DNA of 64,000 nt. It comes from Aphrocallistes beatrix (taxonomy: Eukaryota > Porifera > Hexactinellida > Sceptrulophora > Aphrocallistidae). Position 1 is the first letter of the stretch; the number at the start of each line of letters is the position of its first letter. Made by a program: the position numbers and the translations under genes. The stretch spans positions 1,054,001-1,118,000 of the forward strand of contig OY725496.1 of assembly GCA_963281255.1 (NCBI GenBank), read 5' to 3'. Positions 1,373-63,130 of this stretch are shown here, in pieces. A model generated the notes under the pieces. The model searched no databases, was not told the origin of the DNA, and was given only the letters and a program-made list of their open reading frames with translations.

Positions 1373-1720
1373 GGGGACGCTGCATTTGTTCGAATTTTTA
1401 TGTTGTCACTTGTTCGAATATCTGATGTTGTCACTTGTTCGACTCTGTTTTTGGAGGAGTTGTCACTTGTTCGACTTGTTCTTAAAGAGTTCAAGTGAAT
1501 TTGGGCATTTTATTCCTCTTCTCTGTGGAGTGACCTTTTCAGAAAGGAATGTAACCAAATGAGCAGAAAAGTAGGCATTTGATGTCGGAAACGTGATACA
1601 ACTCCTTTAGAAACAGAGTCGAACAAATGACAACTCCTCCAAAAACAGAGTCGAACAAGTGACAACATCAGATATTCGAACAAGTGACAACATAAAAATT
1701 CGAACAAATGCATGCGCCTC
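1373..1720. mobile_element. capped inverted minisatellite element, TTGTCACTTGTTCGA type
   Basis: Begins GGGGACGCTGCATTTGTTCG and ends CGAACAAATGCATGCGCCTC, an inverted pair of caps. Inside, units containing TTGTCACTTGTTCGA run on the left arm (1386-1480) and their reverse complement CGAACAAGTGACAA on the right arm (1617-1700). About 140 bp of unique sequence lies between. Member of the class also found at 2477, 15209, 53744 and 62641. Non-coding; an open frame across the arms is a repeat artefact. Confidence 0.7.
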
Positions 1721-1947
1721 GATTCGTTTACCCTGGTTGTTACACAACATACTCGTGATATTATAATTAATGTATATTGAGGCATCTATTCGTTTCAGTA
1801 TGTAGGAGCAGTGGCGTTGAATTCAACAAATGTTGGGGAGCGAAGTGTATTTTGTCTACTTGGAATTATTTGGAGGTTGAAATAAGAATTTCGCCCCATT
1901 CTTACAATTACTAGTGTAAAAATTGTCTTTTAGTTGGTTGATAGCAA

Positions 1948-2434
1948 GGTTGAAACCGCTTCAACCAAATACCAATTTAACCGAATAATGGGTAGACCAA
2001 ATAATTTGGTTAACCGAATAATTTGGTCAACGGAATAATTTGGTCAACCGAATAATTTGGTCAACCAAATAATACTTGATAATATTTTTGCATAAATGTT
2101 TATATAAATATTTATACAAAAATATATTCAAGTATAAGTAAGCCTATTATATTTATTTGTGTTCGGACCACTTCATGTAAGAACATGTGATTATTGTGTT
2201 GGGAAAGCATGCAAATTATTTGTTTGGCTAAATATTCAGTTGACCAAATTATTTGGTTGACCAAATTATTCGGTTGACCAAATTATTTGGTTGACCAAAT
2301 TATTCGGTTGACCAAATTATTTGGTTCTCAACCGAATACCAAATAATTATATTTGGTTACAAACCAAATATCAATTATTTTCAAATAATATTTGGTTAAA
2401 CCGAATAATAAACTATTCGGTTTCAACCCTGGTT
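1948..2434. mobile_element. inverted minisatellite MITE, 17-bp CGAATAATTTGGTCAAC units
   Basis: Tandem ~17-bp units CGAATAATTTGGTCAAC occupy about 1990-2070. Their reverse complement GTTGACCAAATTATTCG occupies about 2235-2330. Outer ends read GGTTGAAACCG and CGGTTTCAACC, so the element is an inverted repeat overall. It lacks the GCATGCGCC cap of the neighbouring elements and so looks like a separate family. Confidence 0.6.
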
Positions 2435-2476
2435 AATAGTAACGTGTACTTGTTACTTAGTCTTAGAGTATTGGAT

Positions 2477-3179
2477 GGGGGCGCTGCATTAGTGCGAATT
2501 TGGAGAGTTGGCATTAGTTCTACTCGATTTTTTAGAGAGTTGGCATTAGTTCTACTGAGTTTTAGAGAGTTGTCATTAGTTCTACTCTACTTTTGTGAAG
2601 GTTGTCATTAGTTCTACTCGCGTTTTGGAGGGTTGGCATTAGTTTTACTCTTTTTTATAGAGAGTAGACATTCGTTTAACGGAAATATGGTTGCGGAGAA
2701 AATATTCTCAGAAAGTGAAAGTAGGCGTTTTAAGTTTGAAACAGTGTCAAATTGACCGTGAAAGTGGCATTTTAATTTTGTAAGGTTTGAAAGCATAACA
2801 ATGAGTAAAAATCAAGAATTGATTATTTAGAACTAATGCCAACTCTCCCAAAATTCGAGTAGAACTAATGCCAACTCTCCCAAATTCGAGTAGAACTAAT
2901 AACAACCCTCTCAAAAGTAGAGTAGAACTAATGCCAACGCTCTAAAGTCGAGTAGAACTAATGACAACTCTCCATAAATCGAGTAGAACTAATGCCAACT
3001 CTCCAAAACTCGAGTAGAACTAATGCCAACTCTCTAAAACTCGAGTAGAACTAATGCCAACTCTCCATAAATCGAGTAGAACTAATGCCAACTCTCCATA
3101 AATCGAGTAGAACTAATGCCAACTCTCCAAATTCGCACTAATACCAACTCTAGAAATTCGCACTAATGCATGCACCTCT
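2477..3179. mobile_element. capped inverted minisatellite element, 31-bp AGTAGAACTAATGCCAAC units
   Basis: Left cap GGGGGCGCTGCATTAGTGCG (2477-2496). Left arm has about five units of TTGGCATTAGTTCTACTC. A unique centre (about 2660-2825) follows, then a right arm of about eleven units of roughly 31 bp with core GTAGAACTAATGCCAACTC (2830-3160). The right cap CACTAATGCATGCACCTC ends at 3178. The terminal unit switches from ...AATGCCAAC to ...AATGCATGCACC, so the cap is built on the repeat unit itself. Best example of the class. Confidence 0.75.
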
Positions 3180-3464
3180 ATTGGATTATTGGCTGGTTAA
3201 TTCCAAGCAATAGTAACTGATACAGACTCCTCTATATCCATGGTATTGTTTTTAAATCTCTTGTATTAACTAATTTTCACCTTCCACCTCCTTTGTGTTA
3301 AATCTCAAAACCATGGATAAATGATTCTATACTACTCTTTTATGTGATCAATTAGTTTACCTAGTACTGAAAAACCGGGGCGTCGAAAAGATACTTCCGC
3401 CCCCTGTTTTAAAACTGGGGAGTTGTAAATCAAAATTCTTAGATATTTTCTCACGCTTCCATAA

Positions 3465-15087: not shown

Positions 15088-15722
15088 CAGTAGTACCTCG
15101 TTAATACGAACACGGATAATGCGAAACTCCGGATAATACGAAGAGGTATTTTATCCCTACGGAAGAAAATGCATGTTAATCACTTCAGTTAATATGAAAG
15201 GGAGGCTTGGGGAGCTGCATTTGTCCGAATTGTCAAAGTGTCGTTTACACTGTTAGCTAATAGAAATTCGCAAAAATAATCTGAAAATTGATTTGGACAA
15301 ATGCATAACATACAAATTTGATGCGAAATTCAGACAAATGCATGCACTCCAATATTATTTCCAGATAATACGAACAAATTTCAACGCGCCCCTGGTGTTC
15401 GTATTAACGACAGGCTTCTCAATTCTCAAGATCTCGTCGTGTCACACGATTCGTGAAAACGTCACGATCTCACGACAGACCCCACAAATCTCACGATTTG
15501 CCTCAAAATATCACGATGGTTCTATTAAATATCACGATTTACGAACTCTCTCAGTTTGAGAGTCTTGCTTGTGTCTTACAAGAACGATTTATATAATGTC
15601 CTACGATAGAATTGTGAGGTTCGTTTAGATTTATTATTGTCTCATGACGGGATCGTGAGATTTACGAAATCTCACGATTTCAACCCCTCGCAGGTTGAGA
15701 GCTCTGTTACGAGGTTCTACTG
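15088..15722. mobile_element. Tigger/pogo-type element (CAGTAGTACCTCGTTAATAC ends) with nested repeats
   Basis: Starts CAGTAGTACCTCGTTAATAC after TA and ends GTTACGAGGTTCTACTG. Inner related text 'gttcgtattaacgacagg' appears near 15400. It holds the capped element 15209-15350 and a TCACGAT-rich inverted repeat (about 15420-15700). Non-autonomous. Confidence 0.55.
15209..15350. mobile_element. short capped element (GGGGAGCTGCATTTGTCCG)
   Basis: Left cap GGGGAGCTGCATTTGTCCG and right cap CAGACAAATGCATGCACTCC are inverse. This is the shortest member of the capped class, with almost no tandem array inside, so it shows the caps without the minisatellite. Confidence 0.6.
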
Positions 15723-28744: not shown

Positions 28745-29245
28745 TGTCTAGGTTAACAAATGATGTAATATCAGTCCTAATAAGCGGTCTAACCTCCAAG
28801 TCGTGCAAGATTGCTTCATCCAGCTCGTCAGTAGAAGAGAGAGACGAGGAGGGAACTTCAACTTCGGTGTACCGTGGACAGGTTCTGGGCTATATGAAGA
28901 ACATGGCTGAGGCTGTTGGTCTCTATCCACTTGGTTAGCAACATCGGCTGAAGGAATCGTCACATCCGGCTGACATAGAGTCATGCGAGAGAGTGGGAGG
29001 AGGAGGGTAGGCGTGCTCGATCGTGGGACAGGAACTGCTGTAGCCTCGGTAGTTTGAGTAGAGAATTCGATGATCTCGCCACCCATCTGTAGGGCGTCAT
29101 CTACATCATATTGAGCGAGTCTATCAACTCTTGGGGTAGCATCAAATCTACAGATAGATCAGGGGGGATCCTCCTAAAGTGCACCTCAAGGGGAGTACGT
29201 CCAAATGACTGTTTGACAGTATTCTTAGTATATTGAACATATTTG
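28745..29245 (-). pseudogene. integrase C-terminal fragment, inverted
   Basis: The minus strand reads QYTKNTVKQSFGRTPLEVHF then RRIPPDLSVDL, the part of KRBA2-type integrases after the core. The frame then shifts into IEFSTQTTEATAVPVPRSST. The bases ATATGTTCAATATACTA at the start are identical to those ending the plus-strand integrase at 28140. The two fragments therefore belong together and one was inverted. Confidence 0.6.
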
Positions 29246-29880
29246 AACTACACTCTGTCCCTTATAACAGATCAAGTGACAACTAAACTACACCCTGTCC
29301 CTCGTAACAGAGCAAGTGACAACTGAACTACACCCTGTCCCTTATAACAGAGCCAGTAACAACTGAATTACACCCTATCCCTTATAACAGAGCAAGTAAC
29401 AACTGAATTACACCCTGTCCCTCATAACAGAGCAAGTAACAACTGAATTACACCCTGTCCTTCATAACAGATCAAGTGACAACTAAACTACACCCTGTCC
29501 CTCGTAACAGAGCAAGTGACAACTGAACTACACCCTGTCCCTTATAACAGAGCCAGTAACAACTGAATTACACCCTATCCCTTATAACAGAGCAAGTAAC
29601 AACTGAATTACACCCTGTCCCTCATAACAGAGCAAGTAACAACTGAATTACACCCTGTCCCTCATAACAGAGCAAGTGACAACTGAATTACACCCTGTCC
29701 CTCATAACAGAGCAAGTAACAACTGAATTACACCCTGTCCCTCATAACAGAGCAAGTAACAACTGAATTACATCCTGTCCCTTATAACAGAGCAAGTAAC
29801 AACTGAATTACACCCTGTCCCTCATAACAGAGCAAGTGACAACTGAATTACACCCTGTCCCTCATAACAGAGCAAGTAAC
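29245..29880. repeat. 40-bp minisatellite, about 16 copies
   Basis: Unit of 40 bp: AACTGAATTACACCCTGTCC followed by CTCATAACAGAGCAAGTAAC. Copies differ by a few positions (GTAAC/GTGAC, CTCAT/CTTAT/CTCGT). A block of several units is itself duplicated (29281-29400 vs 29481-29620). The GAGCAAGTGACAAC text matches the core of the capped elements, but no GCATGCGCC cap is seen. Confidence 0.9.
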
Positions 29881-53739: not shown

Positions 53740-53743
53740 GGGA

Positions 53744-54122
53744 GAGTGTCGTTAGTCCCACTCCGCATGTAGACGTTAGTCCTAATTCTGACTTGTAGAC
53801 GTTAGCCCTACTTCTAAATTTGCATTAGTCCTGCTTTTTTCAGATGTAGGCGTTAGTCCTACTCTCACAAGTGTCCACAATTTCAATGAAATATATGTAA
53901 GAAGAAAGGGAAAATGAAAGAATATTAGCTAAAGACTGTGAAAGAGGCATTTATGAATGAAGAGGTGGTTGAGTGGCATTTTAAGTGAGTGACAATGAAT
54001 AACAGGGATAAATGGTGCCTTTTGGTGAGGATCAATTGAAATAGTTTTAGGAGTAGGACTAACGCTTACATAGAGAGTAGGACTAACGTCTACATATGGA
54101 GTAGAACTAACGCATGCGCCCC
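53744..54122. mobile_element. capped inverted minisatellite element, GTAGGACTAACG type
   Basis: Left arm GTTAGTCCCACTCCGC, TGTAGACGTTAGTCC units; right arm AGTAGGACTAACGTCTACAT units; right cap GAACTAACGCATGCGCCCC. The left end is weaker (GAGAGTGTCGTTAGTCC). A 180-bp unique centre holds no gene. Confidence 0.65.
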
Positions 54123-61351: not shown

Positions 61352-62134
61352 ATGATATCGATGCATTATGAATCAGAATTATATGATTTGAAAAACCGAT
61401 GCAAGAAGATCGCGATAAGTTCACAAGGTAGTTTAAGAAAATTATTCGATGATGAAACTAGAACGGACCCTTTCACATATAGAATTTCATTCAACGAATG
61501 TGAGTCTTCTATCTACAGATCACGTAGGAAAACACAACCAAAGATTCCTCTTAGCGCTGAAGAATTTTCTGAAATGTTACCAGGTACGACCTATAGCAAA
61601 CACCATTAGTTTACGATATCTCTAGATACTCAAGTTGCAGTTATATTCTACTCTGAAACTATGATGAATTTATTGCTCGAAATCACAGACATCCAATTTG
61701 ACGGAACATTTTATACCGTTCCTGTTCAGTTTTATCAACTGTGGACTATTTTTGTTGTAGTTGATAGATATACACTCCCAACAATACATTGTTTGATGAC
61801 ATCCAAAAGTCAGAAGCTGTACATTGCAATATTGGAACGATTTTTTTCTAATTTACCAAATTTTAAACCTATGACGGTTGTATCAGATTGGGAATCAGCG
61901 CCTAGAAATAGTTTCAAGGAAATATATCCTAATATCAACATTAATGGTTGTTGGTTCCATTATACCCAACGCATTTGGGCAAAAGTACAAAAGCTCGGTC
62001 TCACTCAAAGTTTCCATAAGAACAATGAAATTAGAAAATTTGTAAAGCAGCTGATGGCAATCCCTTTTTTACCTGCAAGTCTAATAAGTCCAACTTTCCT
62101 ATTCATTCAAGCTCCGGATCTGTCTGCAACATAA
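61352..62134 (+). pseudogene. MULE transposase, one in-frame stop
   Basis: Frame open from 61352 except TAG at 61607. N-part SSIYRSRRKTQPKIPLSAEE; core ITDIQFDGTFYTVPVQFYQL (first Asp), VVVDRYTLPTIHCLMTSKSQ, MTVVSDWESAPRNSFKEIYP (second Asp) and NINGCWFHYTQRIWAKVQKL, the C-x2-H block of the MULE domain. The third-acid region and C-terminus are missing. Typical of FLYWCH-associated MULE transposases. Inactive or cut short by the gap-side truncation. Confidence 0.75.
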
Positions 62135-62640
62135 TCTATGAAAATGGATAAACTTGTTAAGTATTTCATATTAGTAATGTCAGATTATATAATATGCAAG
62201 TACGTATATAGATATATTTATTAAACAAACTGACTCGACAATAACAAATTTATTACATGTATCAATTTTATTTTAGAGAATTCATATAATATCCAAGCCA
62301 ATATTTATATTACACGAATCAAAAAATGTGTTAAATAATGCGTTTAATTGAGTAGGCAAAATGGCACTAATTTGTTATTAGTAAGCGAAATAAATGGGGG
62401 TCAGTAAATTGGAGGTAGGTTTTGGCGGGCCAGAATTATTGGGGAAGCGGGCCGTAGGTTGGGGACCTCTGATCTATTCTTTTAACTATTATTTTTTAAT
62501 CATTACTCTTTCATTACATTATTTCTTATTCATTTTTCATTTATTCAACATCAATTATTCATTCTTTCAAAATCAATTCACTTTTCAATCTTTATCAGTA
62601 AAAAATTAGACAGTTTATTAGTAAAACTTCCAATAAAAAA
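62135..62640. other. spacer with a hAT terminus
   Basis: 62440-62475 (GCGGGCCGTAGGTTGGGGACCTCTG in part) is a typical hAT end of the CAGAGGTCCCCAACC type; its partner was not seen. The rest is AT-rich. Confidence 0.45.
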
Positions 62641-63130
62641 AGAGTCGATATATCGACAACCTCCTTAGAAGTACATTCGATCTATCAACAACCTCCTTAG
62701 AAGTAAATTCGATCTATCGACAACCTCCTTAGAAGTACATTCGATCTATCAACAACCTCCTTAGAAGTAAATTCGATCTATCGACAAACTCCTTAGAAGT
62801 AAATTCGATCTATCGACAACCTCCTGAGAAGTAGATTCGATCTATCGACAACCTACTTAGAAGTAGATTCGATCTATCGACAACCTCCTTAGAGTAGATT
62901 CGATCTATCGACAACCTCCTGAGAAGTAGATTCGAACTATCGACAACCTCCTGAGAAGTAGATTCGATCTATCGACAACCTCCTTAGAAGTAGATTCGAT
63001 CTATCGACAACCTCCTGAAAAGTAGATTCGAACTATCGACAACCTCCTTAGAAGTAGATTCGATCTATCGACAACTGTCCATTTTCGATCTATCGGCAGC
63101 TAAATAATTCGATCTAATGCAGGCGCCCCC
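62641..63130. mobile_element. capped minisatellite element, 32-bp TTCGATCTATCGACAACCTC units
   Basis: About 14 units of roughly 32 bp with core TTCGATCTATCGACAACCTC and spacer CTTAGAAGTAGA, in one orientation only. The right end leaves the unit and reads TTCGATCTAATGCAGGCGCC then CCC, the class cap. No left cap or inverse arm was found. Confidence 0.75.

What the first reader, a model, noticed from the sequence alone, without database searches (positions are those of the whole stretch)
2477..3179. A class of minisatellite elements with one shared cap but different repeat units
Seen: five loci (1373, 2477, 15209, 53744, 62641) end in the same text: a repeat-unit start (GAACAA, CACTAA, GACAAA, GAACTAA, GATCTAA) running into ATGCATGCGCC or a close variant. 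At three loci the other end is the inverse. Between the caps the units differ in sequence and length (about 17-32 bp). Within a locus the cap replaces the second half of a unit at one fixed point. Inferred: a mobile element class whose ends are recognised while the internal array turns over or is exchanged. I know of no described family with this design.
Basis: partly seen in the sequence, partly recalled or inferred. Interest (0 to 1): 0.85.

Follow-up and report, generated by a model that had tools for sequence, protein, structure and literature searches.

The report
Foldback jumping genes with swapped repeats
These repeat arrays are the arms of a family of cut-and-paste jumping genes (Mutator-type foldback transposons) that keep similar end sequences while the repeated motif next to the ends differs from one subfamily to the next; the design is known from other animals, but this family is new to me.

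Summary
The right cap occurs 160 times in the 100.5-Mb host genome against 6 in the reversed control, and the left cap GGGGNCGCTGCATT 119 times against 0. The caps are insertion boundaries: of 41 left/right cap pairs read, 30 are flanked by an 8- or 9-bp target-site duplication, and none of 7 same-type pairs is. The copy at 2477-3178 has TATTGGAT on both sides. Paralogous empty sites exist for several copies, including the one at 1373. Three larger relatives (L082, L041, L062), each with an exact 8-bp duplication, contain Mutator-like (MULE) transposase and RING-finger matches. L082 shares its arms with the 2477 element (92% over 278 bp). So these are foldback-type MULEs and their non-autonomous derivatives, closest in design to Tm1 of root-knot nematodes. 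Similar caps occur with transposases only 38-44% identical whose repeat units are unrelated. I infer, without proof, that the units are binding sites for a transposon protein.

The parts
2477..3178 (+). Non-autonomous foldback element, 702 bp: left cap GGGGGCGCTGCATT, left array, short core, right array, right cap AATGCATGCACCTC
   Evidence: Read; arrays (2499-2676; 2828-3131); exact 8-bp duplication; right arm 92% identical over 278 bp to coding element L082
2469..2476 (.). Target-site duplication TATTGGAT, left copy
   Evidence: 0 mismatches
3179..3186 (.). Target-site duplication TATTGGAT, right copy
1373..1720 (+). Non-autonomous foldback element, 348 bp, TTTGTTCGAA subfamily; inverted arms
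   Evidence: duplication GATTCATT/GATTCGTT with 1 mismatch; empty paralogous site L093
1365..1372 (.). Target-site duplication GATTCATT
1721..1728 (.). Target-site duplication GATTCGTT
15208..15350 (+). Degenerate short copy, both caps, no array and no duplication found
53740..54122 (+). Divergent copy with GACTAACG-type units, inverted arms (70 bp, 80%), no duplication found
61361..62167 (+). Relic of the family's MULE transposase (54% identical to the L090 ORF over 269 aa)
   Evidence: Pfam PF10551 1.3e-10 for 61661-62134; tblastn 1e-96
62641..63129 (+). Array of ~32-bp GATCTATCGACAACC units ending in right cap GATCTAATGCAGGCGCCCC, beside that relic and probably its right arm; left end not found

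Best explanation
These are foldback-type Mutator-like (MULE) DNA transposons and mostly their non-autonomous derivatives. Shown: defined left and right ends, 8-9 bp duplications, empty sites, arms made of tandem units, length changes by about one unit, and larger copies with MULE and RING matches between the same kind of ends. Inferred: the transposase cuts at the outermost ~8 bp; the motif beside the cap, repeated as an inverted array in each arm, is a set of binding sites for the transposase or its RING partner; arrays grow, shrink and homogenise by unequal exchange or slippage, so the motif can change together with its binding protein while the cut site stays fixed.
For: Duplications: 30 of 41 left/right pairs against 0 of 7 same-type pairs; at one fixed boundary 22 are exact 8-bp, 2 are 8-bp with one mismatch, 5 exact 9-bp and 1 is 9-bp with one mismatch, and shifted boundaries give 0-5 exact matches. 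Empty sites: 29 joined-flank queries, 12 with a hit across the junction, of which L089's is its own flank; gapless at the junction for L014, L027, L038, L071, L075 and L083; also L093 for element 1373. Transposase: L082 (C9:2832984-2836047, GGCATTAG duplicated), L041 (ATCTACAT) and L062 (TCTGGAGG) hold MULE and RING matches between caps and exact duplications; L090 has both caps around a 432-aa MULE ORF and a RING ORF. MULE-family loci with an exact listed cap within 2.5 kb: 8 of 49 on contigs C1-C10, against a mean of 0.74 under rotation, 0 of 1000 rotations as high (90 of the 106 rows were entered). Turnover: L007 and L038 are 98.9% identical apart from one 62-bp gap. Terminal and internal motif agree: 38 of 102 ends hold an exact internal copy of their own terminal 10-mer, against a mean of 3.0 (maximum 9, 200 trials) when motifs are swapped between ends.
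Against: Eleven of 41 pairs have no duplication, including L090, the copy with the 432-aa open transposase frame; 4 of the 11 re-use an end that has a duplication in another pair. 64 of 102 ends had no exact internal copy of their terminal 10-mer within 300 bp. The FLYWCH match is below Pfam's cut-off (20.7 against 23.6 bits). 41 of 49 MULE-family loci on C1-C10 have no listed exact cap nearby, though only the first 100 places per cap were listed. No empty site was found for the 2477 copy. No binding or transposition was tested. The correlation of unit similarity with transposase identity is weak over all pairs (Spearman 0.36, p 0.09, 23 pairs).
Confidence: 0.94

Rival explanations
1. Ordinary minisatellites whose flanks happen to share text; no mobility.
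For: The arrays are detected as tandem repeats and 11 of 41 cap pairs have no duplication.
Against: Cap counts 119 against 0 and 160 against 6; 30 of 41 pairs with duplications; empty sites.
Confidence: 0.01
2. Non-autonomous elements of another superfamily with 8-bp duplications (Merlin, hAT, P), with the MULE genes only nested or neighbouring.
For: Most duplications are 8 bp; 20 Merlin-type (PF12762) matches exist in the genome; one MULE (L063) lies just outside a cap.
Against: L082, L041 and L062 have MULE matches between caps and exact duplications; L071 and L021 hold MULE or RING fragments between duplicated ends; none of the 20 Merlin matches lies within 8 kb of a cap among those listed (the lists are capped at 100 places per search). 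hAT and P were not searched for.
Confidence: 0.04
3. The elements are foldback MULEs, but the arrays are passive by-products of slippage in long inverted arms; motif similarity between terminal and internal units only reflects descent.
For: Unit gain and loss is frequent; no binding data; 64 of 102 ends lack an exact internal copy of their terminal 10-mer.
Against: Different subfamilies each have an array whose unit resembles the motif beside their cap; tandem-repeat sites in the TIRs are bound by the transposase THAP domain in Galileo (PMC3688188, abstract and Discussion read).
Confidence: 0.3

Closest known systems
Tm1, Mutator/Foldback family of root-knot nematodes (PMC3169594; passages and first part of Discussion read)
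   Same: Unlike 7-bp motifs at the two ends outside the inverted repeat; arms made of tandem units in variable number; MULE transposase; 8-10 bp (mostly 9) duplications; coding and MITE-like copies
Ghost MULE clade (PMC6446971; passages and section 5 read)
   Same: Transposase ORF plus a separate RING ORF of 420 bp (140 aa open frame in L090)
   Different: The paper found no complete element, TIR or duplication for Ghost; here both are seen. Clade membership not tested
Phantom MULEs (PMC6446971 table passage; PMC3169594)
   Same: MULE domain, N-terminal FLYWCH-like match, 8-10 bp duplications, a minisatellite noted in aphid members
   Different: FLYWCH match sub-threshold here; RING ORF here; clade not tested
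Drosophila foldback elements: Tetris (PMC4079207, passages read), FB/NOF (recalled), Galileo (PMC3688188)
   Same: Long TIRs with internal tandem repeats; 8-10 bp duplications in Tetris
   Different: Tetris has no known transposase; Galileo has a P-type one
VANDAL/VANC of Arabidopsis (PMC5735166, passages read)
   Same: Works alike if the inference holds: short motif of a transposon-encoded DNA-binding protein multiplied as tandem repeats and differing between subfamilies
   Different: Plant anti-silencing system; no VANC gene was looked for here

Membership tests
Foldback-type transposon | Inverted arms containing internal tandem repeats around a variable middle | tested here: met
   Arms (32 of 34 elements gave an arm alignment by my rule); arrays
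Foldback-type transposon | Target-site duplication at the array-bearing ends | tested here: met
   30 of 41 pairs
Mutator superfamily (MULE) | MULE transposase encoded inside the element | tested here: met
   PF10551 7.1e-10 for the L090 ORF; matches to it inside L082, L041, L062 between exact duplications
Mutator superfamily (MULE) | Duplication of about 8-11 bp | tested here: met
   8 bp in 24 and 9 bp in 6 of the 30 pairs that have one
Phantom subclass | FLYWCH domain plus MULE domain | tested here: inconclusive
   FLYWCH E 4.7e-4, 20.7 bits, below the 23.6 cut-off
Phantom subclass | Groups with Phantom in a transposase tree | not tested
   No reference sequences at hand
Ghost clade | RING ORF beside the transposase | tested here: met
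   PF13920 2.8e-11; RING match in 5 of 6 close MULE loci and 0 of 24 others among L039-L068
Ghost clade | Groups with Ghost in a transposase tree | not tested
   No reference sequences at hand
Tm1 family | Terminal motifs CGGTTAA and CCTACCC, ~14-bp Motif C | tested here: not met
   Caps and units read here differ

The most novel reading that the evidence does not exclude
One animal MULE clade treats end recognition as two modules: a nearly fixed ~8-bp handed cap for cleavage, and a subterminal motif that is replaced and re-amplified into a fresh array as the transposon's DNA-binding protein diverges, so that new subfamilies escape cross-mobilisation; arms can also be swapped onto old cores. 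This would be an animal counterpart of VANDAL/VANC co-evolution.
Probability: 0.35. Interest if true: 0.65.

Novelty: new member of a known kind. Interest (0 to 1): 0.4.

Why it matters
PMC3688188 (Discussion) says that whether tandem repeats in Foldback and Phantom ends act as binding sites is untested. This genome holds several subfamilies with similar caps, different units and their own transposase genes, so the question can be put directly. It also offers a RING-bearing MULE with ends and duplications defined, which the Ghost description lacked.

Tried and rejected
Merlin as the mobilising family: 20 PF12762 matches, the nearest 8.3 kb from a listed cap (lists capped). L092, the best Merlin locus, shows no left cap within 3 mismatches, no inverted repeat by my search and no tandem array. 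hAT and P were not searched for. Empty site for the 2477 element: its left flank matches 38 other places at 91-97%, ending at query position 105-127, but no hit crosses the junction at 150, so this copy rests on its duplication. Of the 12 joined-flank hits, those for L020, L078, L081, L084 and L087 have gaps near the junction, and L020 and L078 are weak. Target consensus: 24 eight-bp sites show no strong motif. A first motif-covariation test by single linkage merged nearly all subfamilies and was uninformative; the exact 10-mer version replaced it. The Spearman test of unit against transposase similarity was not significant; there the L090 unit was taken from its near copy L091 and the L090-L082 identity is roughly the mean of two matches. 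In one search, 90 of the 106 rows were entered; the other 16, which I took for further pieces of loci already entered, were left out. The 34 elements were hand-picked; L088 (exact 9-bp duplication) was missed there and in the empty-site queries. Paper searches for a sponge foldback family (7 papers held the terms; 192 held three of four, 12 listed) and for a MULE with RING finger and tandem TIR repeats (0 papers) gave no description of this family; this covers only the open library searched.

Full report
Observation. The window lies at C10:1054001-1118000 of an unnamed 100.5-Mb genome. Host identity was not tested; the proteins (NHL-repeat and fibronectin type III matches) make me guess an animal, perhaps a sponge. 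The five loci are as described, with the corrections listed in the observation check. The right cap ATGCATGCGCC occurs 160 times against 6 reversed controls. With one mismatch the counts are 315 against 4 (pattern two bases longer) and 473 against 22.

Boundaries. I read the window and 92 loci. Of 41 left/right cap pairs 100-3000 bp apart, 30 have a direct repeat at one fixed boundary: 22 exact 8-bp, 2 8-bp with one mismatch, 5 exact 9-bp and 1 9-bp with one mismatch. Shifted boundaries give 0-5 exact 8-bp matches. None of 7 left-left or right-right pairs has one. Four of the 11 pairs without a repeat re-use an end that has one in another pair. So the two ends are handed: left GGGGNCGC-TGCATT, right (inwards) GRGGYGCATGCATT. 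Inside these ~8 bp the arms are inverted repeats; in 32 of 34 elements an arm alignment was found, 72-100% identical (the 100% is a 17-bp match). The copy at 2477-3178 has TATTGGAT on both sides; the copy at 1373-1720 has GATTCATT/GATTCGTT.

Empty sites. Twenty-nine elements with a duplication were turned into joined-flank queries. Twelve hit fetched DNA across the junction; one of these (L089) is only its own flank. Six are gapless at the junction: L014, L027, L038, L071, L075 and L083 (the best L014 hit and the L027 hit are repeats within their own locus). The other five have gaps near the junction or are weak. For 1373 a genome search found a paralogous site at C3:318822, which reads straight through with one copy of GATTCGTT, with other small gaps in the left flank. 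For 2477 no empty site was found.

Who moves them. PF10551 (MULE) has 121 matches in the genome. L090 (C3) has both caps 2.73 kb apart, a 432-aa MULE ORF and a 140-aa RING ORF, but no duplication. The stronger cases are L082 (3064 bp, GGCATTAG on both sides), L041 (2323 bp, ATCTACAT) and L062 (2450 bp, TCTGGAGG), with MULE and RING matches inside. The frames there are interrupted in part. L082's arm matches the 2477 element at 92% over 278 bp. The L090 protein has 106 matches genome-wide; I entered 90 of these rows and merged them to 80 loci; on contigs C1-C10, 8 of 49 have an exact listed cap within 2.5 kb, against a mean of 0.74 by rotation and 0 of 1000 as high. In the window, 61361-62167 is a relic of the same transposase (54%) and 62641-63129 is an array with a right cap beside it, so the fifth locus of the finding is probably the right arm of a decayed coding copy. 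RING matches occur in 5 of 6 MULE loci close to L090 and in 0 of 24 others among L039-L068.

Arrays. Closely related copies differ mostly by gaps near multiples of 31 bp (31, 62, 93), with some of 25 bp and some that fit neither. In 38 of 102 ends the exact terminal 10-mer recurs within 300 bp inside, against a mean of 3.0 after swapping motifs between ends; 64 of 102 show no exact copy. The ends of L041 (GGGAACGC / GGGACGCC) and L062 (GGACTGCTGC / GGGGACGCCTGC) resemble those of the window elements, although their transposases are 38-44% identical to L090's and their units (GGAATTTGACCAACG..., CAAATTACCAACATATG...) score at chance against L090's. Of 23 pairs of coding loci, the four with the highest transposase identity (49-68%) have clearly similar units (z 3.7-9.6); the fifth (L055-L067, 48%) does not (z 0.3); of the 18 pairs below 45%, three reach z above 2. 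The overall rank correlation is 0.36, p 0.09. L007 and L038 are copies of one chimera at two sites with different duplications: one subfamily's arms surround another's left cap and core. The transposase match points towards the left cap in L090, L082, L041 and L062, and away from it in L091 and L071 (in L041 and L062 'left' is assigned by resemblance), as would be expected if arms recombine and flip the middle.

Comparison. The design is known. Tm1 of root-knot nematodes has handed 7-bp termini, tandem-repeat arms, a FLYWCH-MULE transposase and 8-10 bp duplications. Tetris is a Drosophila foldback with 8-10 bp duplications. The Ghost MULE clade has a RING ORF but no known ends. Marzo and colleagues found further binding sites in Galileo's tandem repeats and state that for Foldback and Phantom this is untested. 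VANC proteins bind motifs multiplied as tandem repeats in VANDAL elements. I therefore file this as a new family of foldback-type MULE; Phantom or Ghost clade membership was not tested.

Verdict. The finding is a real transposon family of a known kind. What is of interest is that one genome holds several subfamilies with similar caps and different arrays together with their transposase genes.

Noticed in passing
L094 (C3:332480-332860), 93-264: A different insert with inverted GGAAATAGTTCGA units and GGTA-type ends sits at the position homologous to the 1373 insertion, flanked by GATTCGTT on both sides (172 bp): two elements at one target site, or replacement of one by the other.
   Followed up: partly
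L007 977-1513 (rc), L038 1346-1822 (rc): Chimeric element: one subfamily's arms around another's left cap and core, at two sites with different duplications.
   Followed up: partly
L019, L022-L025, L033, L036: A left cap followed by TTTTTCAGAAT lies about 70-110 bp from a right cap on the other strand in these loci, which looks like a composite element that has multiplied.
   Followed up: no
L063 (C8:1087062-1090337): A MULE/RING gene lies just outside a right cap, and another right cap faces it from the far side at C8:1090365: an inside-out arrangement or two neighbours.
   Followed up: no
C7:3992879/3993866, C9:1162852/1163996, C16:1993899/1995337, C19:947623/948955: Merlin and MULE transposase matches come in inverted pairs about 1-1.4 kb apart.
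   Followed up: no
L003 (C1:2883331-2886341): Right-type caps at both ends whose flanks continue as a long inverted repeat: an element inside a palindromic duplication.
   Followed up: no
window 29244-29880: A 40-bp minisatellite, 15.9 copies, 93% matches; not examined for caps.
   Followed up: no
window 1979-2440: The left flank of the 2477 element (2327 to about 2440) belongs to a repeat with at least 38 other copies at 91-97%; 17-bp arrays lie nearby at 1979-2073 and 2212-2326.
   Followed up: no
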